A stretch of 64,000 bases of DNA, taken from the NCBI RefSeq assembly GCF_014356525.2, contig NC_052508.1, positions 41,162,613-41,226,612 on the forward strand, in the 5' to 3' direction. Of this stretch, positions 1-49,986 are shown piece after piece; within the stretch, counting starts at the first letter, position 1; every line of letters begins with the position of its first letter. The DNA comes from Nilaparvata lugens (lineage: Eukaryota > Arthropoda > Insecta > Hemiptera > Delphacidae). A program made the translations under genes and the position numbers. Under the pieces are notes generated by a model. It did no database searches and was not told where the DNA came from. It saw only the letters and a list, made by a program, of their open reading frames with translations.

Positions 1-946
1 ATAGTTCAAACTAGTAATGGATTATATAGAATAGCAGCTAAATGTTAGGTATGTAAAACTAATAAAAGTAAATTCATAAAATCACCAGTAACTAAAGAAA
101 TTATTGAAAATAATTTAACTTAGGAAGAAGAAAAAATTGAAGCTATTGAAATACATAAACCATTAAAAAAAAATTTAAAAGAAGAAAAATTTTAACATTA
201 GGAATTGATAATTTATGGGCTATAGATCTTATGATATTTGATAAGTATCATGAACAAAATGATGGATATAAATATATTTTGAATGTTATAGATACATTTT
301 CAAAGTATGTATGGGTTGAACCATTGAAGAAGAAGAATGGATTAGAAGTTTCTAAAGCATTTGAAAAAAATTTAAATAATACTAAAAAAGTTAATCATAA
401 ATCTCCAAATCTTATACATTCTGAGAAAGGTCTTGAATTTAGAAATAAAGAATTTAATCAATTATTAAAAAAATATAAAATAAAATTATATCATACTGAA
501 AATGAAGAAAAAAGTGCAATAATTGAAAGATTAATAGAACATTAAATAATAAATTGAAAATTATTTTTGAAATGAATAAAAATTTCAGATGGATTGATGA
601 CTTACAAAATATTATTATAAATTATAATAATATAAAACATAGTACTATAAAAATGAATCCTATAGATGTTGATGAGAATAAAGAAAATATATTATTGAAT
701 ACTGTTTATAATTTCAAAACTTCAAATAATATTATTAAACCAAAATTTGAAATAGATGATAGAGTTAGAATTCCATCATTTAAAGAATCATTTGAGAATA
801 AATATAAAAATAATTGGACTAGAGAAATTTTTATTATTACTAAAATTATCTATACAGATCCTATAACATATAAATTGTAAGATTTAAATAATGAAGATAT
901 GATTGGTAGTTTTTATGAAGATGAATTGAAGAAAACATTATTATAA
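1..946 (+). pseudogene. Polinton integrase (rve family), frameshifted
   Basis: The DDE integrase would insert the element's DNA into the host genome. A partial Cys-x2-Cys zinc region lies near bases 40-60. The catalytic core follows: the first Asp is in the AIDL motif just before 231, and the third acidic residue is in the IERL motif near 520-535. At the second Asp position (near 420-430) the sequence reads Ser-Glu-Lys-Gly-Leu-Glu-Phe, so Glu stands where the family has Asp. The tail at 740-940 has the DDRVRIP and FYEDEL blocks typical of the C-terminal SH3-like/chromo region. Breaks are TAG codons near 46 and 121, a slip in the A-run near 165-180, another one-base slip near 520-545, and an in-frame TAA at 878-880. 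It is not functional as read. The 5' end is cut by the window. Confidence 0.85.
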
Positions 947-969
947 AATATATAATTTTTTATATATAA

Positions 970-1275
970 ATGGAAAATAAAAATCATATATGTTCAAGAT
1001 GTGAAATAAATAATGAATACATGAAAACATGTTCAAAATGTGCAATAGATAAAACTCATAATAATTTTTATAAAAGTAAAACTTGTAAAAATAATATATT
1101 AAGTTGGTGTAAAGAATGTGATATTAAAAAAGTTAGAAATTACTATTATAAAAATAAAGATAAAATTTTAGAAAAAGTTAGATGTGATGTATGTGATAAA
1201 TTCATTACTAAAACATATATGAAAAAACATCAAGAAATGGAAAGTCATATTTCAAATCTAAAAAAAATAATTTAA
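970..1275 (+). CDS. Small zinc-ribbon/zinc-finger protein of the Polinton
   Basis: This 101-residue ORF has a TATA-like run just upstream and an ATG at 970. It contains three Cys pairs: CSRC and CSKC near the N-terminus and CKEC mid-protein, with an NNFYKS segment resembling the NEFYKN block of viral zinc-ribbon proteins. A C-terminal Cys-x2-Cys...His...His unit (CDVC, KKH, ESH) could be a C2H2 finger. It lies between integrase and ATPase. It is uninterrupted although its neighbours are broken. Its TAA stop overlaps the stop of the minus-strand ORF in a TTAA palindrome at 1272-1275. A DNA- or RNA-binding role is inferred from the fingers only. Confidence 0.6.
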   Translation: MENKNHICSRCEINNEYMKTCSKCAIDKTHNNFYKSKTCKNNILSWCKECDIKKVRNYYYKNKDKILEKVRCDVCDKFITKTYMKKHQEMESHISNLKKII

Positions 1276-1472
1276 GTTTTATTTAAAAGTGAATTTATAT
1301 GTTCAATTTTAGATTCAAAATCTTTTAATTTATCATTTATTTCATTTTTAAGATTATTATATGTATCCTGATTTCTATCTATACTACTTTTATCAAGTTT
1401 TTCAAATAAGATATGAATAGCTTTATTAAGTTTTTCATCTAAATTTTTCATAAAATTTTTAAAATAATCCAT
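1272..1472 (-). CDS. Small coiled-coil protein, function unknown
   Basis: This is a 66-residue ORF on the minus strand, convergent with the zinc-finger gene and divergent from the ATPase, about 65 bases from the ATPase start. It is rich in Lys, Asn and Leu, and hydrophobic residues fall at heptad-like spacing (LDEKLNKAIHILFEKL, then LKNEINDKLKDFESKI), so it is probably a coiled coil. I do not recognise a family. Small coiled-coil ORFs of this kind are common in Polinton-like elements, but the AT-rich composition means chance ORFs of this size are possible. Confidence 0.4.
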   Translation of the reverse strand: MDYFKNFMKNLDEKLNKAIHILFEKLDKSSIDRNQDTYNNLKNEINDKLKDFESKIEHINSLLNKT

Positions 1473-1538
1473 TGTTATAAACTCTTCATTAATTAAGCTA
1501 ATAATTTCATTTATAATAAAATAATTTTGAAATAAATA

Positions 1539-2228
1539 ATGGATATAACAAATTAATTTTTATGAAGAAAAAATTAATAATTCATTATTACCACATCCAT
1601 TGAGAGCTATTATTATTGGTAGTTCTGGTAGTGGAAAAACTAATTTATTATTAAATTTAATTTATAAAGAGAAAGCGGCTTAAAATTTTTATATCTTTAT
1701 GTTTTTAGTAAATCACTAGAACAAAGATCATATACAGATTTAGAAAAGCATTATCAAAAAATTGAAAATAAAATTAATAATAAAATAGTTTTTTTCTATA
1801 ATTCTTGTGATGATTTAATTTCAATAGATGAATGTTATGGAAATGCATTAATTGTATTTGATGATTGTTTAATGGAAGAACAAACAAAAATTAAAGAATA
1901 TTTTATAAGAGGAAGACATAAAAATATTTCATGTATCTATCTAAGACAAAGTTATTGTCATCTAGATTTAAGAGTAATTAGAAATAATGTAAATTTATTA
2001 TTTATTTTCAGACAAAATAAATATTATACTAAACAAATTTATGATGATCATGTAGGATTGGAAATGAGTTTTAATGAATTTCAAATTTTATGTAAAAAAT
2101 GTTGGGATGAACCTTATGGTTTTATCACAATAGATATGACTAGAAAATCAAATGATGAAAAATATAAACTAATGTTGAAAAATGATATATTAAATAAAAA
2201 ACGTACATTTAACATTATAAAAAATTAA
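1539..2228 (+). pseudogene. Polinton packaging ATPase (FtsK/HerA, A32-like), frameshifted
   Basis: This ATPase would drive DNA packaging into capsids. The Walker A motif GSSGSGKTN is at about 1617-1645. After a one-base slip in the A-run near 1670-1680 the frame resumes and carries a Walker B (ALIVFDDC) at about 1845-1870, then the sensor/arginine-finger region (IRGRHKNISCIYLRQSY) at 1905-1955, which is typical of Polinton and poxvirus A32-like ATPases. The ATG at 1539 sits in a plausible context, but another slip lies within its first 20 bases, so start and core are not in one frame. The last about ten codons and the stop are homologous to the units of the tandem array that follows. Confidence 0.82.
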
Positions 2229-2450
2229 TGTTCAAAAACATACATTTAACGTTTAAAAAATTAATGTTCAAAAACATACATTTAACATTTAAAAAATTAA
2301 CGTTCAAAAACATACATTTAACGTTTAAAAAATTAACGTTCAAAAACATACATTTAACATTATAAAAAATTAACGTTCAAAAACATACATTTAACGTTAT
2401 AAAAAATCAACGTTCAAAAACATACATTCAACGTTATAAAAAATTAATGT
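2199..2450. repeat. Tandem array of about 36-bp units, about 7 copies
   Basis: The unit reads approximately AACGTTCAAAAACATACA followed by TTTAACGTTTAAAAAATT. Copies differ by C/T changes (AACGTT or AATGTT) and by TTTAAA or TTATAAA. The first partial unit is the coding end of the ATPase gene including its stop codon, so the array seems to have grown from the gene's 3' end. The AACGTT palindrome recurs in each unit. Confidence 0.9.
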
Positions 2451-2515
2451 TTAAAAAAGTTTAAAAATGTTTATTTTACTTTTTTTTGAATAATAATACA
2501 TTTTTTTATTTATAA

Positions 2516-4054
2516 ATGAAGGATCTAAAAAATGAAGATTTGAAAAAGTTAAATGAAATTGATAAAGATTTATTACAAAGATTCAAAGAAGGTGAAAAAG
2601 AACAAATAAAAGAAAGAGATAAAATTGAACAAAAGAGTAAACTTATTAAAAAAGATCCATATAATGGACCAGAATTTGATGAATTATTATTAATCCAAAA
2701 ATGATGAAATATCATTATCCAAAGCTAAATATGTTTATGATTTAGAAAAAAAACTTAAAGATGAGTTTAAATCTAATCATATTCGTGAAGGACTAGAATT
2801 AAAAGAAAGAGAAAAGAAATATGAACCTATTATTAACGCTTTAAAAGAAAATAGAATTAATGATGATAGAAAAGTTGAAAATTCAAAAGATATTCTAATT
2901 TTTAATCCAAACATAGTTAGTACTCCATTTCGAAAAATTCAATTTGAAGATGAAGATGAAAATGATTTTCATTATAATGAATCTACATCTACAATTGAAG
3001 ATCCAATAACACCTGAAAAAGAAACTTTTAAAACTAATAAATCTTTGAAAAAAATTATGGATTCATCTATTATTAATATTGGATCAATTGCTTCAAAATT
3101 TTTACCAAGAGCACATGATAAACAATTTGGTATTTGGTATGATGAAGATATTGAAGAATGGAAAATTGATAATTATCCTATGACTGTTGATATAGATGAT
3201 ATTATAATAAAATATAATGAAAATGAAGAAAAATATAAAGGTACAGAAGGTTTATGGAGACTTTTAACTAGAAATGATTATTTAGAACGTGAAATGTTTA
3301 CAAATGATGATTGGAATAATTATAAGAACATCATGATAAAAACTTATTCTCTATTTCAAAATAATGATCCAAAAAGTAGGAAACCAAAATCAAGTAAAGG
3401 TAGAAAATGGAAATTAGTTAAAACTATTTGGGAAGAACTTATTAATCAGAAAGGATCTGGAGTATTAGAATTTAATAATAAACCAATTGAATATAGATAT
3501 ATAAATAATTTAAATGAATTAGTTAAAAGACTTAATTATATTTCAGCTCAAGAAAATGCTGGAAATAATAGTTTTCATAATGAAAAAATGTCTTTAGTTA
3601 AATTTATGAATGATAGACTTACAGAAATAATTGATACACCAAATAGTACTAAATATTTAATTAGATGTATGTCTTTATTACCTGAAAATGTTATAGGATC
3701 TGGTTTAGTTAATGATATTATAAATAATCTACCTTTAGAGTTCTATTATCCAGGTGCAAATTTCTGTGGTCCAGGAACAAAACTTAAAGAAAAATTAGAA
3801 AGAGGTGATAAAGGAATTAATCCAACTGATGAATTTTGTAAGGAACATGATATATTTCATTCAAATAATAGAACTCCAGAACAAAGATGGATAGCTGATA
3901 AAAATTAAAAGATCAAGCTTTAAATCATTTATTTTCAAAAGATGCTACTTTAAATGAAAGAGCTATGGATTTAGTTATTGCTCCTACAATGTGGGCTAAA
4001 AGAAAATTAGGATTTGGTTTAAATAGCTCTTCATTAATATATTCCGATAAATGA
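2516..4054 (+). pseudogene. Polinton structural protein with C-terminal phospholipase A2 domain, frameshifted
   Basis: The reading begins at ATG 2516 with a charged, probably coiled-coil N-terminus. It slips by one base near 2697-2702 and then stays open to 3907. It slips again near 3900-3908 and ends at TGA 4052-4054. The middle (about 3110-3440: FGIWYDED..., then YKGTEGLWRLL, then KSSKGRKWK) matches a conserved segment of Polinton proteins. The C-terminus has the parvovirus VP1-type PLA2 signature: the calcium loop CGPGTK (about 3765) and the His-Asp catalytic pair in CKEHDI (about 3838). The last part (DQALNH through KRKLGFGL) is the usual end of this domain. In related virions the domain helps breach membranes. 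Here it is interrupted twice. Confidence 0.78.
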
Positions 4055-4070
4055 AATATTAAATTTTCTG

Positions 4071-4102
4071 AAAAAAATAATTTTATTGAAAAATTATTTT
4101 TT
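4071..4102. terminator. A/T hairpin between convergent genes
   Basis: A 13-14 bp near-perfect stem (AAAAAATAATTTT with its complement) with a 4-base loop lies in the 87-bp gap between the PLA2-protein stop and the polymerase stop. Its position suggests a role in 3'-end formation for both genes. In such AT-rich DNA this could be chance. Confidence 0.3.
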
Positions 4103-4141
4103 AAAAATTTATTCCTCCAATTTTTTTTTAAAAATTATTTA

Positions 4142-4731
4142 TTATTTTATATTTTCATGACCCCATGGTAAAGAATTTATTTTATCTTTTAATATGTATC
4201 TTTTTTCATCTTTTGAACTTAAAGCTAATTTATTCAAAGTTATTGTGTATAATTCATGTTTATAACTTCTAATACAATTCATTTCTCTATAATCCTTTAT
4301 CTTCAAATAAACATTTCTTAAAATTTTCCATTTTTATGTATCTATTTTTAGTATTTTCATCTAATTCATCTAATTTTATATTTTTGTTCATTAATAAACA
4401 TTTTTTAATACCTTTACATTTTACTTCATTTTTATTATTTGAAAACATATAACTATAGCATTTAGATCTTAATCCACAAAACTCTTCTAAAGGTATACCA
4501 TTCAATACATCTTTAAATTTTCCAATTATTTTCTCATTTTTATCCATATAACATTCATGATTCTTATCATAATCACTTGTATCAAATTCATTTTGATTAT
4601 TTTCTATTATTTCATAAGGATCTTCACTCATTTCTAAGAAGAAACTATCTGTATCCATGTATAATAATTAGCATCTGGATCATATTTTTTAATTTTATCA
4701 TAATAAAATTGATACATTAATAATTTAGATT
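4142..4731 (-). pseudogene. Protein-primed DNA polymerase B, C-terminal fragment, frameshifted
   Basis: This is the C-terminal part of a family B polymerase that would replicate the Polinton. On the minus strand from 4731 it reads a KLLMYQFYYDKI segment, then the catalytic motif C (MDTDS, at about 4640-4658), the thumb region with EFCGLRSKCYSY (about 4450-4500), and the end block IRSYKHELY...LPWGH, with TAA at 4142-4144. One-base slips lie near 4660-4668, just before motif C, and near 4285-4295. The N-terminal exonuclease and palm sequences are missing because the similarity stops at about 4731 in an AT-rich junction. It converges on the PLA2-protein gene. Confidence 0.85.
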
Positions 4732-5890
4732 ATATATATATTGTAAAGTATCGAATTGGGTAGATAAAAATCCCTAACCGAAATAGTAATAGGTCTGAAA
4801 ATAAAGTAACTGGCTAATATCGCCAAATAGATAATAACTAAGATTAGATAGCATCAGCTTGTTCTGGCTAAACGGTACAAAAACCTAAAAAGGATGTGAA
4901 GGAATTTGTTGCTAATAAATAGATTATTATATAAAATATTTTGAAGATTGAGGTTAGGTACATGTATTCACGGATCGGTGACCTAGAGATCGATCAAATC
5001 GAGAAACGTAGAATCTGACCAAAACCCCTTGGCAGAGCTCTATTGCAATCAAACGGTATGCAATGTGAAAAAACACCTGATCACGTGGCTAATTATTAGG
5101 TAGCATGAAATTAATATTAATGTATAGAATATTAGCTAGCATGTAAAGAGCATAACCAATAAACCAAATAAAAATAATTAAGTGTATTCAGGAAATAGGA
5201 GGTACCAGGCGCATGAATACCGAATAAAATTTGCATGCACCAATAGCAAAACGGCAGTTAATAGGCGGCAACTGTAGGCCAATTCAAAAATATTTCTATA
5301 TATTTATATAAATGTACTGGATTTTGTGTTAAAACTTTGTATAGTCTATGTTATCGATATGGCTCGAAAGCAAAGAAATTATTAATCGTACAATCTAAGT
5401 AATATTTTGGTATTTTTTGTAAGATCTATTTGAACCTAAATGGCGGAGGACTAAGATATTCAAATTTTATGTTAATTTGAAAGTCGGAAATGAGATTTGT
5501 AAAATTGAGAAAGGAGAACCAGCACTCGCCAACCAAATGCCACCAGGAGAGGACCCCAAATATTTTAGAGCATAGTACCTTGCTAATAAATTTGTAAAAG
5601 TTAAAGTTAAATCACATTATTAAATTTCTTAAAGGACATGAATGTTTATGGTGTGCAATTATTTTTATTCCTCAACACTATAGTATAAGTATCATATTTA
5701 TATATATTTATTTTATTGAATTACAAGAGTTATAGGAGAAGCCCATACCTAGGCCTATCAAGATTTTTTGAGACTGAATCCTATTAAAAAACCACGACCT
5801 AAATATATGATTATATCAAATATCTCATGCTTTACCGACTGATGCCAAGCAGGAGGCTAATCGTTATTTAAATATAAAGAATAACGTGAC
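4732..5890. other. Unrecognised insert between Polinton and BEL/Pao remnants
   Basis: No ORF of note occurs here. The base composition changes abruptly from the Polinton side (more G and C). A short inverted motif lies near 5250-5280 (cggcagttaataggcggcaactg). It may be the body of another mobile element that interrupted the polymerase gene, but no termini could be identified. Confidence 0.4.
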
Positions 5891-14319: not shown

Positions 14320-17058
14320 ATTTGAAGTAAAGTGAGGATAGGTTCCTGGAATGTAAGAAGTATGCTTGAAATTGGTAAGGTGCACAATGTTATCCAGGAG
14401 ATGAACCGCCTAAGTATTCATGTAGTGGGTGTCAGCGAGTGTAGATGGAAATATAATGGACAAAGATATATTCTTGACAAAACTGTTCATTACTCAGGTA
14501 GTACCGATGGCTCAAACTCCAATGGTGTGGCTGTAATAATAGATCAATCCATTAAGAAAGCAGTAAAGAACTTCTTACCTTTGTCAGATAGAGTAATGCT
14601 CCTTCAATTGAACTTAGACATTGGAACTCTCAACTTCATTCAAGTCTATGTCCCAACTGTGGAAAAGGGAGATTAAATTATTGAGGAATTCTATGAAGAT
14701 GTCAGTAGAGTGATGGAAGTAACCAGACTTCAAGATGTTACTATATTCATGAGTGACTTGAACGCGAAGATTGGACAGTGTCAAACCAACAAATGGATTG
14801 GTCGTTTTGGATTGGGAGAGCGGAATGAGAGGAGACCGCCTCCTTCAGTTTTGCCAGGAGTATAATATGGTTATTACAAATACTCTATTTCAGCTACCTA
14901 AGAGACGGTTGTTTACATGGAGATCACCACAGGACTCAAAAGACAGAATAGTTCGAAATCAGATTGACTACATCATGATTAATCAAAGGTATAGAAATGC
15001 TGTCAAAAGTGCTAAAACATTTCCGGATGCAGATATTAATTCTGATCACAATCTTCTGGTGGCCGAGATCAGAGTAAGAAAAAAACAAAGCGGGAAAATG
15101 TATGTATGCGTATTGATGCCAAGAAGCTCAAGAATGTCACTGTTAAAGCAAGAGTTTTTCGAGAAATGAATGATTAGCTGGGATCTATAAATGATCAAGT
15201 CTGTCTAATGGATGAGCCAGAAATGATATGGGGGGATTTCAAGACTGCACTATTACAACCAAGTAGGGAGTATCTCAAGTATGGAAGGTCAGATAAGAGC
15301 AAACAGTGGATGACTGAAGAAATACTCAATCTCATGGGGGAACGACGTCAGTTCAAAGGTGGTGATCGACAGAAATACAAGGAAGTTAACAACCAAATCC
15401 GATACGAATGTAGAAAGGAGAGGGATGCTTGGTTGAAGCGGAAGTGTGAGGAAATGGTACAGCTGAAAGCCCTTAATGACTCTTATAACATGCATAAGAA
15501 GATGAAACAGTTCACTGGAGAGCAAAGTGAGAAAGGATATTTGATGACTGACGGAAATGGGAATATAATTTTGGATGTGAAGGAGCAACTGAAGTCGTGG
15601 GGAGAATAAATTCGAGGACTTTTTGATGATGTTACGGAGTTTGTTTGCTGTGACATTGATGAGGGCTCTGGTTTGGATATTTTGAAAAGTGAAGTCAAAT
15701 TTGCCATCAAGAATGTCAAAGGTGGAAAAGCTGTGGGTCCAGACGAACTTTCTGGGGACATCCTCAAACTATTGATGAAGAGAATGTGGGAATTCTTACA
15801 CACTTATATAATCAAATCTACAGGACTGGTGTACTTCCCACTCAAGTCAATCTTTATTACTCTTCCGAAAAAGTCCAATGCTAAGGAGTGTAAAGATTAC
15901 CGAACGATCAGCCTGATCAGTCAAACAATGAAGGGATTGCTCAAGATAATTCATAGGAGGATCTACAACAGGCTGGAAGAGGATTCATCATTTACTCAGT
16001 TTGGCTTCAGGAATAGTTTTGGTACGTGGGAGGCTCTGATTACTTTCAATGTCATTGTACAGCGTTGCCTGGATGTGAACCAACCAATATTTGCCTGTTT
16101 TATAGACTATCAGAGAGCTTTTGACAAGGTACAACATAATAGGCTACTTGAAATCTTGAGAGAGTCTCAAATAGATGCATATGACCTTCGCCTGATAGGA
16201 GCTTGTATTATCATCAGAAGGCTACAGTAAGGGTGCAAACAGAGTGTAGTGAGGAGCTGGAAATTAAGAGAGAGGTTCGTCAGAGGTGTGTGCTGTTCTC
16301 TCCAACATTTATTTGGAGAAAATAATCAGCAAGGCCCTGGAAGATGAGACAGGAGGGATAAAAGTCAATGGCATACCCATCAACAACCTGAGGTATGGTG
16401 ATGATACTGTCCCGCTGGCTGAGAACATAGAGGATCTCCAGAGAATGTTGAATAGTGTCATCACTGCAAGTCAGGAAGCTGGTCTAAGTCTCAATGCCAA
16501 GAAGACAGAGTACATGATATTCACTAAAAATACATCCCCTTTGGATGATCTCTTTGCTGGAGATGAGAGATTGGAGCGGGTAGATGCATACACATATCTT
16601 GGGGCCCGGGTAACTTCCAACGCTGATCACTACACTGCAATTAAAATCAGGATAGAGAAGGCACGTGCTGCATTTATCAAATTGAAGAGTTTAATGATAT
16701 CAAGAGATATAAAAATGGATCTCTGAATTCGTCTCCTTGAGTGTTTTTAGTTCTGTTATATGGCATGGAAGCATGGACCTCGAAGAAATCATGTGGAAAG
16801 AGAATTCAAGCCTTTGAGTCTTGGACCTACCGCAGAATGCTGAGAATCTCATATGCAGACCATTTAACAAATGAAGAGGCTCTCAGAAGAATGAAGAAAA
16901 GGCCAGAGCTCATAGGTGAAATAAAGGGACGAAAATTGATGTACCTAGTTTACATAATGAGGGGAAGAAAATATGAAATATTGCACCTCATTATGCAAGT
17001 AAAAATAACTGGCAAGATATCAGTGGGCAGAAGACGAATATCTGGTTGCGCAACTTAA
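14320..17058 (+). pseudogene. RTE endonuclease-reverse transcriptase, multiply interrupted
   Basis: The endonuclease begins near 14330 (RIGSWNVRSM) with the metal-binding Glu in GVSECRW (about 14430), the Asp-x-Asn region around 14757-14775, and the catalytic SDHNLL block at about 15043-15060. The reverse transcriptase has the VGPDEL block (about 15737), motif A FIDYQRAFDKV (about 16100-16130), and motif C reading YGDD instead of YADD (about 16397). The C-terminus (LLYGMEAWTSKK, RMLRISYADHLTNEEAL) is typical of RTE-like proteins. Breaks are a TAA at 14674-14676, a slip before 14771, a stop near 15167, a TAA at 15607-15609, a slip near 16228-16290, and a stop near 16725. It encodes no working protein. 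Confidence 0.88.
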
Positions 17059-17177
17059 GGGATTGGTTCCAGTGTACATCCAATGACCTATTCAGAGTGG
17101 CTGTGAATAAAATTAAAATCGCCATCATGATAGCCAACCTCCGCCATGGAGACGGTACATGAAGAAGAAGAAGATTC

Positions 17178-21055: not shown

Positions 21056-23264
21056 TGTGAAATGGTATCTTTTATATATACCAGTGTAGCTGTTAATATC
21101 CCTAGCTTGCAAATAAATTTGCAAAAAGTTAAGGCCGTCCGGCTCGCAAATATACTGGTGTCTGACCACAGCTCTAGCTCAGTAATAGATGCATGAATAC
21201 TCTCAATGTAATGAAACATCATGGGTTTCAGTAACTGATAATTAACAATTCTTACTGCTGCTCTCTTGAAGATATTGAAGATTACCAATAAGGAAATTGA
21301 AAAAATAGTTAGTGACTGATTATCAGTAACCATATACTCAATCGAGGATAATGAAAATCAACTATTATTCTTCTAATTGATTTTCAAAACGCTCGTCATT
21401 AATACAGGTATGCACCAATTTATCCTTTCGAAATTCCTTAAGACTTACAACGCCAGTTCTTGAAGTTCTCTGGATCCTATATGACATTATTGTAGACTCA
21501 TTATTATAAATATCGGTGAAATTTTGCTGGCTGAATAATATGACTATCATCAAAGGATGATAAGTGATAAGTGCTCTGAATAAGATCAATATTGATTAAT
21601 TCACTAATTATATATGCTGCAGAATAAAAATGCTTGGTACCAAGACAGCTCAAACTGTATATCATGAGATGAATTAGGAAAATAATAAAAACCTCTAGGA
21701 TCTTGTATGCTGACATAAAACACAAATATATTCCTATGAAATAATACAGATTTAAAACTTCCTTACAAATATAATTTTTTAATGAATAGATTCTTCAATA
21801 TCTCAGTTATCACAGGAATCGTTAGCATTCACAATATTGTGAGCTGTAAAAATATATATTTATTTATTAATACTTATATGTGAAACTTCAGGTCGAGTCA
21901 GAATTTAACAAATTGGAAACTGTTCAGTCTATAGGTTTGATAAAACATACTTTCAACCAATGAATAATAATCAATAAAATAATAATGCACGGAAATAAGC
22001 TTCCCATAATATCAAATGTATTTCTAAATAGAGTTCTTATTCAATATTATGATAGTGGTCAACAAGTTGCAAATTCCTTAAACTTGAATAAGGATTTATA
22101 TAGCGCTTTAAATAATTCCCCAATTCACTGATAAAGGCCTTTTCAATGAGCTCATTAAGATAACCAGCACCACCTTCAATGATGTTCTGAAGTTCTTGTA
22201 GAACAATTAATTATCTCCAATAATTAATTAGTCGAATCCTTCCGACACCACTGGACTCGTGTATGGTCCAGATTACGTATAAGTTCCTATCAGTATTGAT
22301 GATATATTTACGGAAATAAATTACAGTTAAGAACTCTTGAACAAACACTGAGTTCACAAATAATCAAACATTAATTATACACATTTAATATTTGAAAAGG
22401 GACTGGCTTAAGGCTTTTAAAATTAATTGGAAAGAGACCCTATCTCCATATGCTGCCATATAGGTCGAGATCACAAGCCAGAGAGAAAAAGTTCTCAGAA
22501 AAAATCTCATCTCTTCCTCTAACAATTTGTAAGCCTTCCTCTGATTGGCTTTCTAGTCTTTGTAAAACACGATGTAATTGGTTACTTAAGATTCAGGGTT
22601 TCTCCAACTTTTGTTATACAAAAAATAAATAAGAATATACATGAATAACTTATATAATAGCCTGTGAGCATTCCAAATAAATAAATCACAATATATGATA
22701 CTATAGCACTAAGTACATTTAACTTCTTATGTGAGCTTAGTATACTCTTGAGTTTTCATACTTTTTTAGATTTCAATAAATATTTGAATAACATAATAAT
22801 CGTTGTTTTTCCATAACATAAACCTTCTTTAACATATAATATTCACAATTATCTGAGTAAATTTTAATATAATTCATAATAGTCGAGTGATTAATCAGCT
22901 GATTTGTTTGTATAATAACTCAATAAATTGTCAACTGATCCAAGATCAAGTGACGTATTGAATCAAAACAAAAGATTCTAACCTCAAATTGTACTAGCAT
23001 CACCCTTTTCATAATCTACCAATAATAAATTAAGCCGCTTTATAATTTTATTTCTGCCAAAGAATTTTCATTACTGCATAATTATAATTTTGCATGGTTC
23101 TCTTATGCCTTATTGATAATATGACTACTCCTTATCATAAATAAGATTCAATTTTATTAGAGTGTTACCATGACTAGGCTATCTGTTCTCCAAGTTTCAC
23201 AATTCTATTAGAGATTAGTTGGTTTCTTCAGAATTATTTTATGGTGTCAAAACACATCATCATA
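21056..23264 (-). repeat. Y element 3' LTR, with an extra 807-bp segment
   Basis: It matches 54928-56351 over 21056-21996 and 22804-23264. The segment 21997-22803 is absent from the 5' copy. Similarity ends exactly at ACACATCATCATA on the right and TGTGAAATGG on the left, and the left neighbour is ATAG. Minus-strand frames in it (20989-21333, 21365-21725) are partly conserved between the two LTRs but show no known domain. Confidence 0.8.
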
Positions 23265-23489
23265 TGATTTGCCCTCTGATTCCTGATATAAAACAATAAT
23301 TCGGGAATATAATATAGGTTTCTATGATCCTAGTGGTTTTGGATCAGAAATCACACAAGTTACAAAGCCTGTTGATAAAAATAAGTGAGAAATGTGTCTA
23401 CTGAAAAATTCAACAATACGCATAATAACAAATAAATTCAATTAAAATATATGTGCCATACATCGGTTAACCTTCTACTACATACAATA

Positions 23490-25721
23490 ATATAATAATA
23501 ATAATATATAATAATAAATGCCTTTATTTATTTTCAAATACATTACAAACAAATTAACTTTTGAAATAATAATTATCATGTAGGCTAATTACCCCATGGA
23601 TTGAATCCGTCCGGGGGGAGATGTGAGTGACATATAATTACGAATAACTACTTATATTCAATTTTAAAATAAAGTCAACATTATAATTGAGTTTAAGAAA
23701 GTGCACTAATTTGAACAAGAAAAAACAAATTTGAAAAACCACATAATAAAAATTCAACACAGGTGAATTGTCTTTTCAGAAATTGAACTCGAAACTATTC
23801 TAAGAACATGGCCTTTTCACTACTCTTCTAAACGGATATTTTTGCGGAACTACCATGCGCTATACTAACTATAAATAACTATACTATACTCTATAAATAA
23901 CCTCCACTCGCTTTACAAAATATCAATATCCTGATTAAAAATAAAATATTATAACTAGTAAGCAGTCCAATTTTCAATTAGCTGTGGTGATAATTTTCAA
24001 TCAGGCTCAATTTCTCAGTGATAAGGTGTTGTTTCACATAGTTAAACTCTCTCGTTTTCTCTCAAAAGTCTATGTTGTCAACTTCATTAGCGAATTCAGC
24101 TACATTGTAAGGTGCTACCTTCAAACATTCTAATTCCTTACGGCTTTACCCTACTAATTATTGACGTTCCGAAGGTTTTTTCCACTTTGACTTGCTGCGT
24201 TGTGGACGGAGAAATTGTGTTATGTTGCCTCCAGTTGTAGCTGCACCTCTTGCTGGACTCTGTTCCTGATGGGCGATTCTCTTACTTTTATGCGACGCCG
24301 AGAACGCTGATAACGAGGCCTCTTCCAAGTACTTGTTCAACATGTCTTCTGTTAAATCATTCCAAGTAGCATAATTTCCATTGATTAGAAGTCCGATTCC
24401 CTTGATTTTAACGTCATAGCCAGCATCCCGCAGTTGCTTTTGAGTTGAATATAACTTCTTCTTCTTTTCTCTCGTTTCCTTGTCACAATCTGGATAGACA
24501 GATAGCTTACGAGTCTTTAATCTTATCCCATTATTTAGAATACTTTGTCTCTTCATGTTTGATACCAATGACAACATTATTGGGCGTTTGGTACTGGGAC
24601 CAGCAGTTCCTAATCGTTTGACAAAATCAATATCTGTCTCTTTCAGTTCAACTTCCATCACACTATTACTCAAATCCAGTATTTTCTCCATGATCTGCTC
24701 ACGACTCTCACCCTCTTTCTCCTCCATACCGTAAAATATAAGATTTTTCTCTCTGCGCATGGAATCAATCACTGCCCGTTGCCGCGATACCTCGAGTTTC
24801 AACCTATCATTCTCCTCAGTCAGTTTATCAATTCTTTTATTCTGCTCTCCAAGCAACGATGAAATATTCAATTCACTAATCACTTGTTTGATAGTTGTGA
24901 GCGTATTATCATTGATCTCATTTTTTATTTTCTCCAGCATTGCAAACATAACTTTCTCGCTTAATGCCATCCTAGATTCAGTTTAATACGATATAGCCAA
25001 CTAGGATGTGTATATGTCAATTATTTGCAAATCGAGCACTCTGTAAACTCTTCAACTCAAAATTAAAACTTATTGCAAGATTAAAAATTAGGACTCGGAG
25101 ACAAAGGAAGCTGAGGGAGCGCCAAGAGAGCATTCAAGGCTTTTTGGAAGAAATAGGTAGCTCCTGAGATGACAGGCAAAGGTATCAGGTGTGAGAGAGG
25201 CTAGGGATAAGTAATGTTGTATTATAAAACGAAATAAATTGAGAAACAAGAGGACACTGCCATCTAGAAAACAGTACTGAACCAAAAATTCATAACTTAT
25301 GCCAAAAGTCTGCAGACCATTTTTGGAGCGAGATAGCGTTGCAATCACAAACAACAGCTGGTTGCTGTAATCAACCGTTAGTAGAATTCGGCAGTTTGGG
25401 AGGAGGGTGACGAAACGATGACCCTCTACTCCACCCACTCATCACTCGTGAACGAAGATAAGATAAATTCTTCAATGAAAATAATGGCTTCTTCAATCCT
25501 TGTGTTTCTGAACGAAGTGATCCGAATAAAAAAACCACTATATCTCTGTTAATACTTGAGGAATCGCAAATATATTTGACACACTTGTTCACAGCCCTTA
25601 ATTAAACGGTTATGCCGACTTTTAAATCTCTCACTAGACAACAAACCACTTAAATACCTGGAAATTTTACCAGCAAAAACACCAACGACTATACTTACTT
25701 ATCAGTCACACCCACTCCGAT
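23490..25721 (-). mobile_element. ORF1-only LINE with 15-bp target duplication
   Basis: The target duplication CTACTACATACAATA is present at 23475-23489 and 25722-25736 without mismatch. Between them on the minus strand are about 750 bp of 5'UTR, one complete ORF1 (24970-24158), a 667-bp 3'UTR with AATAAATAAAGGC, and a (TTA)n tail. There is no endonuclease or reverse transcriptase. It resembles the half-L1 (HAL1) arrangement known from mammals. Confidence 0.88.
24158..24970 (-). CDS. LINE ORF1 protein, intact
   Basis: This is a complete 270-residue frame. The N-terminus is alpha-helical, with a coiled coil at about residues 40-75 (NKRIDKLTEENDRLKLEVSRQR). Then comes a segment like the RNA-binding domain of LINE ORF1 proteins: KNLIFYGMEEKEGESREQ, DIDFVKRLG, KRPIMLSLVSNMKRQSIL, and DAGYDVKIKGIGLLING. 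The C-terminus is basic and Ser/Arg/Lys-rich. ORF1 proteins bind LINE RNA as trimers. The frame is unbroken, which is notable because nearly every other element protein in the window is damaged. Confidence 0.82.
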   Translation of the reverse strand: MALSEKVMFAMLEKIKNEINDNTLTTIKQVISELNISSLLGEQNKRIDKLTEENDRLKLEVSRQRAVIDSMRREKNLIFYGMEEKEGESREQIMEKILDLSNSVMEVELKETDIDFVKRLGTAGPSTKRPIMLSLVSNMKRQSILNNGIRLKTRKLSVYPDCDKETREKKKKLYSTQKQLRDAGYDVKIKGIGLLINGNYATWNDLTEDMLNKYLEEASLSAFSASHKSKRIAHQEQSPARGAATTGGNITQFLRPQRSKSKWKKPSERQ

Positions 25722-26129
25722 CTACTACATACAATACTCAAATACAAATGATCTCCTCCTCAACAAACAAACATAAAACATCTTTCAAACAATCCCTTCG
25801 CAGCTATGAGCGGTTCTTTGCAGTATTACGCTGCTGAAGCATTTCAAATGTTGGTGCAAAAACATTGTCAACTTAATGACACAATAAATTCTCAGGCTTG
25901 TAAAACCTAACAGTTCCCTTTGCAACTATCACATCATGATTTGTACATTCAACTTTTCCTTCTATTAACTCATCTGTCACCATCTTGTGATCTTTGGATT
26001 GTTTGGTAAGTTGGCCTTAAATTTAAATAATTACTATTTAATTAGTTTGTGAGTGATGAAGAATTTATAGATGGCTTCTTAATTTTCTATTTCTCTTATT
26101 TCAGGTGCTGGTTTAGCTGATCGAAGTGA

Positions 26130-27202
26130 ATAACTCGTCGACTGAACAACTGCATTGTGTTGTGGTCGGAATAGGTACATATTTCGGCAGCTGGTAATGT
26201 GAGTGACAATTCAATCATGATATTTTTTTTTACTTTTCTTATCTCTGAATGGCCCAATATGGCTCCAGAAGGCTTGAGGTTAGAGATATTTTCCCACCAA
26301 GTTGAATCTGGCTTGCTTTCTTTGTACAGTTGGATTGTGTTATGTTAATTATGGCTGCGACTCTATATGGGCCAGTATAAATACTAAAGAATTTTCTTTT
26401 AGTTTTCCTAGAGCATTCGAGATTCTATAACTTTTCGAGAGTAACTCAACACTGACACTGTATTTGAACTGTTTGGATTTGCTATCATGATAGCACTTTT
26501 GTGAGGTCCCTGACCTTTCTAATCTCTGTTGTACCACGTGACAGATATCTAAGTCAGGATAATTTCCAGCGTTTGATGGTGGGAAGTTCATTAATTTCTC
26601 AATAAATATTTTGTTTCTTTCTCCGAAAATAATTTCTACCGGGGTGTATCCTGTGTTCTCGTTTATACAGTTGTTAGAACACTCTTCTAGGAACGGAAAA
26701 TATCTAACCCAACTTTGATGTTTTTCAGAGCAGTATGCCCTCATAAATTATTGTGAAATCTCGGCCATACGGCGCTCTACTGGGTTCGAGCTGGGAGAAT
26801 ATGTGGAGGTTCAAGATGATTTGATGTCAGCCAGGTCAAGTATTCTTCTCCATTGTTTGCTACAGGAGTATAAAGCATTATCTGACAGAATGCGTTTAGG
26901 CTTTCCCACTTGTGGGGTCCATTTATTCACTACACAATTTGCTTCCCCTGTTAGTTTGCCAATTGGAAAGAACATAGTGTATTTTAAGAATATGCATGTT
27001 AACACGAATATATACTTTTTATCATATTGTGCCATAGTTAGAGGGCCGTAAATGTCTGCTGACACTAATTCTAATGGAACAGTTGGCAATATCGGTATCT
27101 TTTCTCCCCTGACTTGATATTTTTGATGTTTTGTTCTTCCACATAAGTTGCAGGCTTTGGCTACTTTTTTGTGAATGCCTTTGAAATAACATGCTTCTTT
27201 CA
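26130..27202 (-). pseudogene. Y: integrase, second half of zinc domain, catalytic core and C-terminus
   Basis: The minus strand starts next to the X target duplication with TLKEACYFKGIHKKV, followed by the zinc-binding CNLC (about 27145). The catalytic core shows the first Asp in SADIYGPL (about 27050), the second in RILSDNALY (about 26890), and the Glu in SNPVERRM (about 26775). The triad is intact. A stop follows shortly after the Glu (near 26750). The typical HQSWVRYFPFLE, NTGYTPVEIIFGE block (26620-26730) and the tail, with a slip near 26385 leading to YTGPYRV, end near 26220. Confidence 0.85.
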
Positions 27203-27375: not shown

Positions 27376-27413
<38 letters not shown>

Positions 27414-29198
27414 ATTTATACTCTATGGTATTGGGGAGTGAAATGAATGGTACACCATAAAAAACTTTATACATATATTGAATGAATAATTTTGAAGAAT
27501 CAGGTCAATATAGAGAATATATAGAGCAAAAAATTATACAATAAAACAAGAACAAATCAAAATAAATATAACAGATCAGTACACTATTTTTCAGTTCTAT
27601 AGCACGAAACTTTACCATGTTCTTTCCAATTCATTGATCATATGCATTTATTTGCATGCACCTTTGATTTTGACTTGTTGTTGCTTGCCAATTTATGTAA
27701 TCTCACTTTATATATTATTTCCCAAATCGAAGAATGATAAATTATTGACGAATCAATAATTAGATATATATTAATTTCTATAGTTCCCAATAAATTTCTC
27801 AATAATAAATATATATATCTCAGGGTGTAAGATTCGGCACCTGATGGAATTAGATAAATCAATTTATCCAAAGATCCAAAGAACCAGAGCTACATTTTAT
27901 TGTTACAAATTGTATTATAAAATCAATGATTGGGTGATCATTAGTATTACAAGTTTAGAACCTTATATTCTTTTAATTGGTGTACTTTTAATATATAATT
28001 GACTCATTCTTATTCAATAAAGTATTTCTTATACCCTTTTAAGACTTGCGCAAGTTTTTGTATTAATTACTTAAAACCTTTCCGACGAGCTAGCTTTCAT
28101 TCTCATTTCACTCGAAGCACTGAGGGCGCCCTAATTTTACTTCAACAATTTTTTTTCACTCACATGCTGAATTTCTATAAGTTTTTGGCGGCGATCTGAA
28201 ATTCCTGGTAGTCCTGGATTGTTGGTGGCCGAAGTCGTCTCTTCCAAGGGATTAAATAAATATTTGGATGACTTTTGCTTTAAAACATCATCACAAAGTC
28301 TTATAGGAAATTAATAATTAGATTAAAACTTCAAGTCTTCAAAATGTACAATGAAGGGTATTGTGCTCTACAAATTTTTGGTGACATTCCATGGTGGTGT
28401 TTGGCAGGCAAGTGGGCTATTTCTCCTTCTCTTTTTCACAATTTTCATTTCCGACTTACAAATTTACATAGAATTTGAATAATTTGCTACTATGCCATTT
28501 AAAGGTTCAAATAGTTTGTGCCAATCTATTAAATTACTACTTATGTCACATATCTGATATTTTATCTGTCCTCGGGCCATATCCAATACATAAACTGAAC
28601 AGTAAACATTCACAAAATCTTATCATTTTCAGAAATATATATAAATACATTTGAATCAGCTCACTATTGCCGCCCATCGATTACTATCATTTAATTGATT
28701 CATGCAAATTTGTTACAGTATACATGCGCCTATGAACATCCTACTTCCTTAATACATTAATTTATTTTTATTTTGGGTTTCAAGTACATTTTTTACATGC
28801 AATACAATTTTATAATCTTTATAGGTTGTTTCTCACTTTATAACAATGAGCCATGTGATTTTTTAGTTCATCTAGTTGCATACCATTTAGTTACAATAAA
28901 TTTCTGCCAAGGTGTCTGGCTAGATTTTACGTTATGCAACTCGATCGATCATTATGTTGCTGATCAATAGATATTTCATGCCTAACCTCAAATTTCCAAT
29001 ACTCTATATAATATTATATAAGTAGCAAATTATATCCATTTCTATTCAGCTGTTCTAAATTTAGCGATGATATCTGATATTATCTAATCTTTAAAAACGT
29101 TATCGCATTTGGCAATACTAGACTATTATTCCACTTCAGACCTATAAATTTCTTTCAAATAGGGATTTTATTTACCCATCAGATTTTGATATGTTACA
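27207..29198 (-). repeat. X element 3' LTR (complete, 1992 bp)
   Basis: The minus-strand start TGTAACATATCAAAATC is shared with 48563 downward. The end GTCAGA is shared with 35955-35960. It contains a (TA)n run at 27381-27410. A GGGGGCG run (polypurine-like) lies just upstream on the element strand at about 29201-29207. The segment 28302-28555 is missing from the 5' LTR. Confidence 0.8.
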
Positions 29199-29661: not shown

Positions 29662-31804
29662 ATGAATCAGAATCTTAATGAAAGTGAAATTAATAAATAT
29701 TTTCAAGAGAGTAGTACAAGTGATGAATCAAACATTGATTCTGAATCAGATGATGAATTGCACCAAATTGAACATGATGATGTTATGAATAGTGATGACA
29801 CTGATAACAACCCGGACTACAATCCTGTTGCAGACCAAGGAAGGCCAGGGATTTTAGAATCAGATGAAGAAGAACCTCTTCCACCAGAAAAGAAGAAGAA
29901 GACTGCTGAAGTAAATACTGTTGTTTCTCACTCACCTGCTGCAATACAACCAATAATCTCAATTCCTGCAAACACATCTTCATCTGTAAGTCAACTTATC
30001 ACAATCGCCAAACAACATGGTTTGCCTCATAACAGAGAGGAAAGGCCCTCAACATCAACAGCTGATCCACACTTGGTAGTTTGCACCAGAGTTAGTCTTC
30101 GAGGGAAAGATGGACATCGTTGGACAAACAAACCAACAACACATATGAATAGATCTTCAGCAGCTAGAAATATTATTCACATATCACCTGGATGCACTGA
30201 TACTGCTAGAAACAAGCTAATACCAGTGGAAGTTTTCAGACATTCCCTAACTCATGAAATAAAAACCAAAATTGTGCATTACACTAATTTGAAAATCAAA
30301 GAAAAAAGTGCAAATTATAACCTTCCTGGGAAAACCGTTGCTGCTATGAGTGATAGTGAGTTTGATGCTCTGTTAGGCTAGTTACATACACATCGATTTT
30401 TGGTCGTACGATATTTTACCGTCCTTATAAATTCTATCAGATTGAACAGATGATTTCAAACATATGATGTTTGCCAAGTTCCATTTAATCTCATAGAATT
30501 CATAGTGACGACAAAATATCGTACAACCAAAATTTGATGTGTGTGTAACTAGCCTTAGGGTTACTGATACTTTCAGCTGCTCAAAAAGACAGTCACCTTC
30601 CATCTTCTAGAATGTTTAACCCACAGATCAGTGGTGAGAGATATCATGCAACCATGAGCTGTGATCGATTCGACTTCTTGTTAGAGTGCTTACGTTTTGA
30701 TGATTATGCTACCAGAGCTGAAAGAAGGGAAACAGACAATTTCGCACCAATAAGAGAAATTTGGGAATTATTTATTACTGCTTGCAAAAGTTCATACAAA
30801 CCTGGCTCATTCCTCACTATTGATGAGCAACTACTTGCATTTTGTGGAAGATATAAATTTAGGATGTACATTCCAAACAAACCAGACAAATATGGCATAA
30901 AGTTGATTTTAATGTGCGACAATGCCACAAAGTACATGATTGATGCTATACCATATACTGGAGAAACAATGTCCACAGAAGGTTTACCTCAAGCTGAGTT
31001 CTTTGTGAAGAAGTTATCAACGACTTGTCATGGATCCAATCGGAATATAACCATTGATAACTGGTTCACGTCTGTTCCACTTGCAACCTCTCTCTTGGAT
31101 GATCCATACAAACTCACTATAGTAGGCACACTGAGAAAAGACAATTGAGAAATCCCTCCTGAAATAAAAAATCCCAAGGGAAGAGCCATAGGGACAAGTA
31201 TGTTTTGTTTTGATGGGCCAAAAACTATGGTTTCTTACAAGGTTAAGAACTCTAAAGTGGTTTTACTTCTATCAATGTGTCATGAGAAACCAGTGATTGA
31301 TCAACACTCCAAAAACCCCAAATAATTCAGACATACAATGCTACAAAAGGAGCAGTTGACACATTAGACCAAATGTGTCACCAGATTTTGTGTAGTCGTA
31401 AGACTAAACGGTGGCCATTGTGTGTATTCTATAGAATCCTGAACATTATTCTAGTGAATTCATATGTCATATATGTGACAAATTTTGTGAAAAGGGGACA
31501 AAAACCACTGTCAAGAAGAAAATTTGCAATGGAGATTCACTACAGCCTCATTGAACCCTGGCTGAAAGAGCGAATAAAGTGTCCAACTTTGACCCAGAAA
31601 CTCAGAGAATCTATCGCCAATATTTTGAAAGTTCCAATGCCAGACAGAGCCCAAAACCTTCCTCAAAACATTCCACGAACCATTTGTGGGATATGTCCAT
31701 CAAAGAAGAGGAGAATGACAGAGAACTGCTGCTGCCGCTGGAGGAAACCAATCTGTGCAGAGCATCGGGCAAAGTGCTGTGTTGACTGTGCCCAGGACTT
31801 GTAA
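29662..31804 (+). pseudogene. piggyBac transposase, split by a MITE and with later breaks
   Basis: ATG 29662 starts an acidic Ser/Asp-rich N-terminus, then the piggyBac domain. A 179-bp MITE with its TTA duplication sits after codon DALL. Deleting it restores the frame exactly. The catalytic Asp residues are all present: TIDEQL (about 30820), TIDNWFTS (about 31055) and VDTLDQM (about 31355). An in-frame TGA at 31146-31148 and a one-base slip near 31320 follow. The C-terminal Cys-rich zinc domain (CGICPSKKRR, CCCRW, CAEHRAKCC, about 31685-31790) is complete. The protein cut TTAA sites when intact. Confidence 0.93.
30376..30554. mobile_element. 179-bp MITE, PIF/Harbinger-like, inside piggyBac transposase
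   Basis: It has TTA on both sides (30373-30375, 30555-30557). The inverted ends are GGCTAGTTACATACACATC and, on the complement, GGCTAGTTACACACACATC, continuing with a TTTTGG(T)CGTACGATATTTT block on both arms for about 45 bp. A 3-bp TWA target and GG-starting ends fit PIF/Harbinger. Confidence 0.93.
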
Positions 31805-46860: not shown

Positions 46861-47034
46861 ACGCCATATCATGGTAGGTCTGTGGAGCAACTAAAGATGC
46901 TTGGACCAACTTACTCGAACAGACCAACACGAGTTGTACATATTTATACAAACAACCCACTTTGTAATAAGGAATGAACCTATATATATATATATTATAT
47001 ATATATATATATATATAATATATATATATATATA

Positions 47035-48563
47035 TAAGATTTATACTCTATGGTATTGGGGAGTAAAATGAATGTTACACCATAAAAAACTTGATACATA
47101 TATTGAATGAATAATTTTGAAAAATCAGGTCAATATAGAAAATATATAGAGCAACAAAATATACAATAAAACAAGAACAAATCAAAATAAAATATCACAG
47201 ATCAGTACACTATTTTTCAGTTCTATAGCACGAAACTTTACCATGTGCTTTCCAATTCATTGATCATATGCATTTATTTGCTTGCAGCTTTGATATCGAC
47301 TTGTTGTTGCTTGCCAATTTAGGTAATCTCACTTTATATATTATTTCCCAAATCAGAGAATGATAAATTATTGACAAATCAATGATTAGATATATATTAA
47401 TTTCTATAGTTCCCAATAAATTTCTCAATAATAAATATCTCAGGGTGTAAGATTCGGCACCTGATGGAATGAGATAAATCAATTTATCCAAAGAACCAGA
47501 GCTACATTATATTATTACAAATTGTATTATAAAATCAATGATTGGGTGAACGTTAGTATTACAAGTTTAGAACTTAATATTCTTTTAATTGGTGTACTTT
47601 TGATATATCAATTGACTCATTCTTATTCAATAAAGTATTTCTTATACCCTTTTAAGACTTGCACAAGTTTTTGTATTAATTTCTTAATACTTAAAACCTC
47701 CCCGACGAGCTAGCTTTTATTTTTATTTCACTCAAAGCACTGAGGGCGCCCTAATTTTACTTCAACTATTTTTTTCACTCACGTGCTGAATTTTTATAAG
47801 TTGCTGGCGGCAATCCAAAATTCCTGGTAGTCCTGGATTGTTGGTGGCCGAAATCGTCTCTTCCAAGGGATTAAATAAATATTTAGATGACTTTTGCTTT
47901 GAAACAGCATCACAAAGTCTGATATTTTATCTGTCCTCGGGCTATATCCAATACATAAACTGAACAGTAAACATTTACAAAATCTTATCATTTTTAGAAA
48001 TATATATAAATACATTTGAATTGGCTCACTATTGCCGCTCATCGATTACTATCATTTGATTGGTTCATGCAAATTTGTTACAGTATACATGCGCCTACGA
48101 ACATCCTACTTCCTTAATACATTAATTTATTTTTATTTTGGGTTTTAAGTACATTTTTTACATGCAATACAATTTTATAATGTTAATAGGTTGTTTCTCA
48201 CTTCATAACAATTAGCCATGTGCTTTTTTAGTTCCTCCAGTTGCATACCATTCAGTTACAATAAATTTCTGCCAAGGTGTCTGGCTAGATTTTACATTAT
48301 GCCACTCGATCGATCATTATGTCGCCGATCAATAGATATTTTACGCCTAACCTCAAATTTTCAGTACTTTATATAATATTATATAAGTAGCAAATTATTT
48401 CCATTTCTATTCGGCCGTTCTAAATTTAGCCATGATACCTGATATTATCTAATCTTTAAAACTGTTATCGCATTTGGCGATACTAGACTAATATTCCACT
48501 CCAGACCTATAAATTTCTTTAAAATATGGATTTTATTTACCCATCAGATTTTGATACGTTACA
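47035..48563 (-). repeat. X element 5' LTR, first part
   Basis: It aligns with 27411-29198 from the TGTAAC terminus to the TA run. It has a 254-bp deletion relative to the 3' LTR, with TCT at both edges. It ends at the (TA)n at 46981-47034, where foreign sequence begins. Confidence 0.82.
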
Positions 48564-49590: not shown

Positions 49591-49986
49591 TTTTAGATTT
49601 TTTTATTTGTCACTCTTTAATTATATCTGTGTTCATACTGTAGATTTTTTTCGGTGGTGTGATGGTTGCTAGTGGTAAATCTTTGGGGGAAATAGTAGAC
49701 TTAATATGGGTTGCTTTTTATGAACTGATCTTGATGCATGTTTGATTTCTTTATTTGGTGGTGGGTTGTTGCGGTGGTGACTTTGTTCTGGTTGTTGGTT
49801 AATTGCAGGTTGGTGTTGGTTTGTTTTTATTGCATGTGCTACTGTACAAAATGATTTATTGATTCTATTGTGATTTTCATTATGTTGGACCTGTATCCTG
49901 AAATTCACATCCTGTTTATTATTTCTATTCAGATGATCTCTGTTATCATAATATGTTCTTTTGTAATACTGTTTACTATTTTGGTA

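What the first reader, a model, noticed from the sequence alone, without database searches (positions are those of the whole stretch)
23475..25736. ORF1-only LINE with a perfect 15-bp target duplication and intact ORF1
The insert has 5'UTR, a complete 270-residue ORF1, 3'UTR with polyadenylation signal and TTA tail, but no ORF2 sequence. The perfect duplication implies retrotransposition as this short form. It parallels mammalian HAL1. The open ORF1 suggests recent insertion or selection.
Basis: partly seen in the sequence, partly recalled or inferred. Interest (0 to 1): 0.75.

Follow-up and report, generated by a model that had tools for sequence, protein, structure and literature searches.

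The report
Half-LINE family in brown planthopper
This is one copy of a family of jumping genes in a planthopper that has lost its copying enzyme but kept its RNA-binding gene in working order, and it probably spreads by borrowing the enzyme of full-length relatives, as 'half-L1' elements do in mammals.

Summary
The insert is real. On the - strand at 23490-25720 (2231 bp) lies an ORF1-only LINE with a 16-bp target duplication, a ~750-bp 5'UTR, an intact 270-residue ORF1, AATAAA signals and a TTA-rich tail. The host is Nilaparvata lugens. It is not a private deletion: I examined 23 ORF1-only loci in two subfamilies; none has ORF2 in place, and 11 of 22 tested have exact flank repeats of 11 bp or more, against 6 of 462 mismatched flank pairs. 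One correction: the 3'UTR is not free of ORF2; it keeps a decayed start of ORF2, and subfamily B also a piece of its end. A sister family ('LINE1' here) has ORF1 plus endonuclease/RT ORF2 and shares both termini. ORF1 diverged between subfamilies under purifying selection (w about 0.2); the ORF2 relic shows no such sign. A covarying 3' hairpin is shared by half-LINEs, LINE1 and 5 of 6 further relatives with ORF2. Best reading: a HAL1-like family moved in trans by related LINEs, its own ORF1 still needed. Trans-mobilisation is inferred, not shown.

The parts
23474..23489 (.). target-site duplication, copy at the element's 3' side (TCTACTACATACAATA)
   Evidence: exact 16-bp match to 25721-25736
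25721..25736 (.). target-site duplication, copy at the element's 5' side
23490..25720 (-). ORF1-only LINE (half-LINE, subfamily A), 2231 bp
   Evidence: bounded by the duplication; seven near-full-length copies elsewhere in the genome at 89-97%
24971..25720 (-). 5'UTR, ~750 bp, begins CGGAGTGGG..GTGACTGATAAG; presumed internal promoter
   Evidence: same 5' terminus in full-length A and B copies and in four of five LINE1 loci; 86-87% to B and 74% to LINE1 in the pairs compared. Promoter role inferred
24158..24970 (-). ORF1, 270 aa: coiled coil, RRM, C-terminal domain, disordered basic tail
   Evidence: model mean pLDDT 79, and the 8 PDB chains with E <= 0.001 are all human L1 ORF1p
23833..24136 (-). 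decayed relic of the start of ORF2 (approximate limits, the lower one set by eye)
23519..23633 (-). 3' end shared with autonomous LINE1 (about 66-72% identity; approximate limits)
23592..23616 (-). 3' hairpin: 5-bp lower stem, GAC internal loop, 4-bp upper stem, 3-nt loop
   Evidence: covariation over 17 sequences; same minimum-energy core in 5 of 5 folded
23523..23532 (-). overlapping AATAAA signals
   Evidence: sequence
23490..23518 (-). TTA-rich 3' tail
   Evidence: sequence

Best explanation
It is a member of a half-LINE family in Nilaparvata lugens, derived from an ORF1+ORF2 LINE by internal loss of most of ORF2. SHOWN: many copies share the shortened form with independent target duplications; a sister family has ORF1+ORF2 with the same 5' start and 3' end; ORF1 is intact in several copies and was under purifying selection; a base-paired 3' hairpin is kept in half-LINEs and LINEs alike. 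INFERRED: the 5'UTR drives transcription; ORF1p binds its own RNA in cis; the endonuclease/RT of LINE1 or another related LINE recognises the 3' hairpin and tail and copies the RNA into the genome in trans by target-primed reverse transcription.
For: Family: 62 matches in the own genome, a lower bound because 40 of 95 candidates were scored. Of 23 ORF1-only loci examined (13 A, 10 B), none has ORF2 in place; L012 holds fragments of another LINE nested in the opposite orientation. Insertion: exact flank repeats >=11 bp in 11 of 22 copies (L012 left out) against 6 of 462 mismatched pairs; one of the 11, L015, is an AT-dinucleotide run. Intact ORF1: six A loci at 98-100% without a stop (L029-L034). 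Parent: LINE1 loci L024-L028 have ORF1 (72-74% DNA) followed by ORF2 with endonuclease and RT domains. All ten more distant ORF1 loci that I fetched (L056, L058-L066) have an ORF2 match downstream. Tree: A 96/94, B 99/98, A+B 100/99, beside LINE1. Selection: fixed A/B codon differences 23.5 synonymous: 18.5 nonsynonymous (w 0.18) against 64:167 for singletons, Fisher p 3e-4; without two poorly aligned copies w 0.21, p 0.002. Stem estimates 0.15 (A) and 0.20 (B). The ORF2 relic between A and B shows no third-position excess (0.49/0.40/0.43). Hairpin: 96.5% of cells paired, 15 cells changed on both sides, 0 of 500 shuffles.
Against: No transcript, protein or mobilisation data. In one search none of the 11 LINE1-like ORF2 matches (79% identity or more) gives a full-length stop-free ORF2, though only 65 of 22,825 candidates were scored; so the nearest helper may be dead and the actual helper is unnamed. 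Eleven of 22 copies show no flank repeat of 11 bp, among them the four 5'-truncated ones L009, L020-L022. The branch inside A, which certainly postdates ORF2 loss, has only 6 synonymous and 6 nonsynonymous changes (w 0.26, Fisher p 0.11 against singletons). With only the best-kept copies the fixed/singleton contrast loses significance (w 0.21, p 0.15). A and B lost different stretches: B's junction is sharp at LINE1 1074/3855, while for A the best split did not converge (5' side ending at 1271-1373, 3' side starting at 4086-4217). The relic A-B distance (0.67) is larger than ORF1 dS (0.38), so alignment error or a 3' exchange may be present. Hairpin folding energy is no better than shuffles for half-LINEs and LINE1 (z -0.06, 0.33, 0.57), and one of six relatives (L073) lacks the 25-nt form.
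Confidence: 0.85

Rival explanations
1. Private internal deletion of one autonomous LINE copy, with no family of its own.
For: Such deletions do occur in these LINEs: L061 has one, and 1 of 40 scored matches spans it.
Against: Here the ORF1-3'UTR junction is shared by many copies with different flank repeats.
Confidence: 0.02
2. The half-LINE moves in trans, but its own ORF1 is not needed; the open frames only reflect youth or selection in an autonomous ancestor.
For: The certainly ORF2-less branch inside A has only 12 changes (p 0.11); two independent late ORF2 losses are not excluded.
Against: w 0.15-0.26 on the A stem, B stem and inside A, 0.17-0.21 for fixed A/B differences in four data subsets; the ORF2 relic shows no third-position excess between A and B.
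Confidence: 0.12
3. ORF1 was domesticated as a host gene and the copies are retrocopies of its mRNA.
For: NCBI lists ORF1s as uncharacterized proteins LOC120353767 and LOC120354584.
Against: Copies keep the LINE 5' terminus, 3' hairpin and TTA tail, and there are at least six dispersed intact ORF1 copies, not one. Synteny in other species was not tested.
Confidence: 0.03
4. A and B are two half-LINE families that lost ORF2 separately from two LINEs not seen in this genome.
For: Different deletion breakpoints; relic A-B is as distant as relic-LINE1.
Against: No ORF2-bearing locus groups within A+B among those found, so one loss is simpler; the relic looks unselected between A and B.
Confidence: 0.3

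Closest known systems
HAL1 (half-L1) of mammals
   Same: Non-autonomous LINE derivative that encodes only ORF1p; here too the ORF1 fold is L1-ORF1p-like. Passages read: HAL1 'encodes only ORF1p' and 'originated independently several times' (PMC5753468).
   Different: Insect host and another LINE lineage; TTA-rich tail and a paired 3' hairpin, where L1 relies on poly(A) (the latter recalled).
HeT-A of Drosophila telomeres
   Same: Non-LTR element lacking pol, thought to depend on another element's RT (passages of PMC5537684).
   Different: HeT-A adds to chromosome ends; this family is dispersed with target duplications. HeT-A sequences were not compared here.
SINEs that share the 3' end of a LINE (recalled)
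   Same: Share the helper's 3' signal and move in trans.
   Different: This element encodes a LINE protein, ORF1, with signs of selection.

Membership tests
HAL1-like half-LINE (kind) | encodes ORF1 but no functional ORF2 | tested here: met
   0 of 23 loci have ORF2 in place; six A loci with intact ORF1
HAL1-like half-LINE (kind) | multi-copy family sharing the shortened form with independent insertions | tested here: met
HAL1-like half-LINE (kind) | derived from an ORF1+ORF2 LINE of the same genome | tested here: met
   LINE1 sister family and ORF2 relics
HAL1-like half-LINE (kind) | moved in trans by an autonomous LINE | not testable with these tools
   inferred from the shared 3' end and hairpin
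HAL1 proper (mammalian L1 derivative) | descends from mammalian L1 and has a poly(A) tail (recalled) | tested here: not met
   insect genome, TTA-rich tail, sister is an insect LINE
HeT-A | telomeric additions without target duplication (recalled, and passages) | tested here: not met
   dispersed copies with target duplications
named LINE clades (Vingi, RTE, CR1, L1 and others) | position in an RT tree with named references | not tested
   no labelled reference set at hand; ORF2 matches Exo_endo_phos_2 and RVT_1

The most novel reading that the evidence does not exclude
The half-LINE outlived its parent. No intact LINE1 ORF2 was found among the scored matches, and LINE1 copies are older (96.4-97.5% identical) than the young half-LINE copies (98.2-99.4%), which still have intact ORF1s. 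Through a 3' hairpin conserved across the group, the half-LINE may now be moved by distant, intact LINEs (ORF2 about 50% identical): an ORF1-only parasite that changes helpers.
Probability: 0.25. Interest if true: 0.75.

Novelty: new member of a known kind. Interest (0 to 1): 0.5.

Why it matters
Half-LINEs are known from mammalian L1, and a pol-less LINE from Drosophila telomeres. A further case in another insect, with its sister LINE, its deletion relics and a covarying 3' signal in one genome, makes two questions testable: why a LINE parasite keeps ORF1 when it borrows everything else, and whether a 3' hairpin decides which RNAs a LINE enzyme accepts. It also suggests that two protein records of this crop pest (LOC120353767, LOC120354584) are transposon ORF1s.

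Tried and rejected
Private deletion: rejected for this insert. Splicing as the source of deletions: the private L061 deletion has no GT..AG at its borders; the A and B junctions could not be judged. Weak self-matches of the insert in the window: 49815-49886 was read and shows no LINE 3' end; 2510-2596 was not followed. LINE-type frames at 14.7-16.7 kb looked like a possible partner, but the self-comparison shows no similarity to the insert. IMG/VR scan with ORF1: no relative confirmed. Rfam: no match in 23000-26200. Pfam for ORF1: nothing above cut-off; the L1-ORF1p likeness came from the predicted fold. Protein database with an ORF1 alignment: 6 hits, 4 of them N. lugens, one weak coral record and one unnamed. 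ORF2: 43 hits, few named, mostly short contigs. LINE clade not settled. Literature: ten searches; apart from HeT-A no insect half-LINE was recognised among the titles and abstract openings listed. Several lists were cut (15 of 47; 53: 8 of 19; 93: 40 of 345, mostly mathematics), and the library lacks most subscription papers, so this is weak. Bao & Jurka 2010 on HAL1 is not held; I know it only from passages and reference lists of PMC5753468 and PMC4859970. PMC5537684 and PMC2881922: passages only. All other papers: listings only. A full copy count by 3'UTR and an empty-site search were not obtained because the genome search did not complete.

Full report
WHAT IS THERE. On the - strand, 23490-25720, flanked by TCTACTACATACAATA at 23474-23489 and 25721-25736, lies a 2231-bp element: ~750-bp 5'UTR, 270-aa ORF1 (24970..24158), ~640-bp 3'UTR with AATAAA signals, and a TTA-rich tail. 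The ORF1 is 98% identical to an N. lugens protein record, and the window lies in a 1.085-Gb genome.

IT IS A FAMILY. A DNA search of the own genome gave 62 matches (40 of 95 candidates scored; a lower bound), seven of them running nearly end to end at 89-97%. I examined 23 ORF1-only loci: subfamily A (L001-L012, L020) and subfamily B (L013-L019, L021-L023), which is 81-86% identical to the window copy and has a different middle of the 3'UTR. Against LINE1 ORF2, tblastn finds only short relics in them, apart from pieces of another LINE nested in L012. An exact repeat of 11 bp or more between a copy's own flanks was found in 11 of 22 copies (L012 left out), against 6 of 462 mismatched flank pairs; one of the 11 (L015) is an AT run, and the repeats differ from copy to copy. 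Four copies look 5'-truncated (L009, L020-L022), as LINE copies often are, but none of these four shows a flank repeat. A private deletion looks different: for L061, from another LINE, 1 of 40 scored matches crosses its junction.

THE PARENT TYPE. Five loci with 72-74% identity in ORF1 (L024-L028; here 'LINE1', my label, not mammalian L1) carry ORF1 followed by an ORF2 with endonuclease and RT domains. Four of the five begin with the half-LINE's terminal sequence (GGAGTGGGG.TGACTGATAAG); in L026 the 5' part is not conserved. The two whose 3' end was seen (L026, L028) end like the half-LINEs, with AATAAAGGC and TTA repeats. In the ORF1 tree A (96/94) and B (99/98) form one clade (100/99) beside LINE1 (midpoint root). 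Of the more distant matches I fetched ten ORF1 loci (L056, L058-L066); all ten have an ORF2 match downstream.

HOW ORF2 WENT. The 3'UTR of A follows LINE1 from about base 860 to 1100 (counted from the ORF1 ATG), by eye to about 1165, and later resumes in the LINE1 3' end. B follows it from about 848 to 1074 and resumes at 3855, alike in three copies. For A the best single split did not converge (5' side ending at 1271-1373, 3' side starting at 4086-4217). The relics are weak (59-67% identity in A), but their alignments beat all 100 shuffles in each of four pairs with LINE1 and three A-B pairs. The breakpoints differ, so either one shorter loss was trimmed twice or ORF2 was lost twice.

SELECTION ON ORF1. 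Over codons 1-240 with 10 A, 10 B and 5 LINE1 copies (L011 dropped), fixed A/B differences are 23.5 synonymous and 18.5 nonsynonymous (w 0.18), singletons 64 and 167 (Fisher p 3e-4); median pairwise w is 0.25 for A-B and 0.21 for A-LINE1 and B-LINE1. Two copies (L007, L018) are badly aligned in places; without them w is 0.21 (p 0.002), on codons 1-160 it is 0.17 (p 0.002), and with 7 A and 6 B best-kept copies 0.21 (p 0.15). Stem estimates are 0.15 (A) and 0.20 (B); a branch inside A, certainly after ORF2 loss, gives 0.26 on 12 changes (p 0.11). The ORF2 relic (10 A, 8 B copies) shows no third-position excess between A and B (0.49/0.40/0.43), though it does against LINE1. Its A-B distance (0.67) exceeds ORF1 dS (0.38), which I cannot fully explain. 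Taken together, ORF1 was kept while ORF2 decayed; the part of this certainly after ORF2 loss is small.

ORF1 PROTEIN. The model (mean pLDDT 79, residues 223-270 disordered) has a long coiled coil, an RRM-like domain and a C-terminal domain. The eight PDB chains with E <= 0.001 are all human LINE-1 ORF1p (best E 5.9e-7, TM 0.47/0.60, 15% identity).

THE 3' HAIRPIN. A 25-nt hairpin about 75 bases before the tail is present in A, B and LINE1 and in 5 of 6 further ORF2-bearing relatives whose 3' ends I fetched; the sixth (L073) has a different one. Over 17 sequences (16 distinct) 96.5% of cells pair, 15 cells changed on both sides, and none of 500 shuffles reached this; slid versions fall to 58% or less. 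Five of five folded sequences give the same core, but folding energy alone is unremarkable for half-LINEs and LINE1. Sharing this signal is the best sequence evidence that LINE enzymes can take the half-LINE RNA.

HELPER. In one search (65 of 22,825 candidates scored) none of the 11 LINE1-like matches gives a full-length stop-free ORF2, whereas more distant families hold stop-free ORF2 frames of 1100-1135 aa (for example C14:5726579, C3:91406106, C1:88087437), and one such family has copies 94-100% identical over ~230-bp stretches. Young A copies are 98.2-99.4% identical to each other, LINE1 copies 96.4-97.5%. So the present helper may be a distant LINE; this is the bold reading.

PLACE AMONG KNOWN THINGS. 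It works like mammalian HAL1, which encodes only ORF1p and arose several times (passages of PMC5753468), and like HeT-A in lacking pol (passages of PMC5537684). It is not HAL1 proper (other host, other LINE, no poly(A) tail) and not HeT-A (dispersed, with target duplications). Ten literature searches listed no other insect half-LINE that I recognised, which is weak evidence of novelty. I rate it a new member of a known kind.

Noticed in passing
ORF1 C-terminus, window 24158-24230 (-), alignment A1: A short motif IT(Q/H/N)FFRP after a variable basic linker recurs near the C-terminus of ORF1 in several of the LINE families aligned. It resembles a degenerate PCNA-binding (PIP) box; that consensus is recalled, not from a call. 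It reads NITQFLRP in A and TITSYLCT in B.
   Followed up: no
L061 (G000:C2:12128300-12130300): A private internal ORF2 deletion in a LINE whose other copies are up to 100% identical over ~230 bp and lack the deletion, so these LINEs were probably active recently.
   Followed up: partly
window 1-5000, frame 3045-3908 (+): AT-rich stretch with a frame weakly like a phospholipase A2 domain (just below Pfam's cut-off) and a frame at 4287-4658 that looks polymerase-like by eye (no Pfam match); perhaps a Maverick/Polinton-type or viral-type element.
   Followed up: no
window 30612-31148 (+): Transposase fragment matching DDE_Tnp_1_7 (E 2.9e-35), piggyBac-type by recall.
   Followed up: no
window 27381-29198 and 47005-48563; 21056-23264 and 54928-56351: Two pairs of repeats within the window, in pieces of 0.5-0.9 kb that are 92-94% identical.
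   Followed up: no
window 14400-17170 (+): Broken endonuclease-RT LINE, judged by eye from its frames, not similar to the insert at DNA level.
   Followed up: partly
L024 5319-9004 and L025 4081-4875 (sense coordinates): Large frames beside two LINE1 copies that look like a DNA polymerase and a capsid-type protein of a Polinton-like element, by eye only.
   Followed up: no
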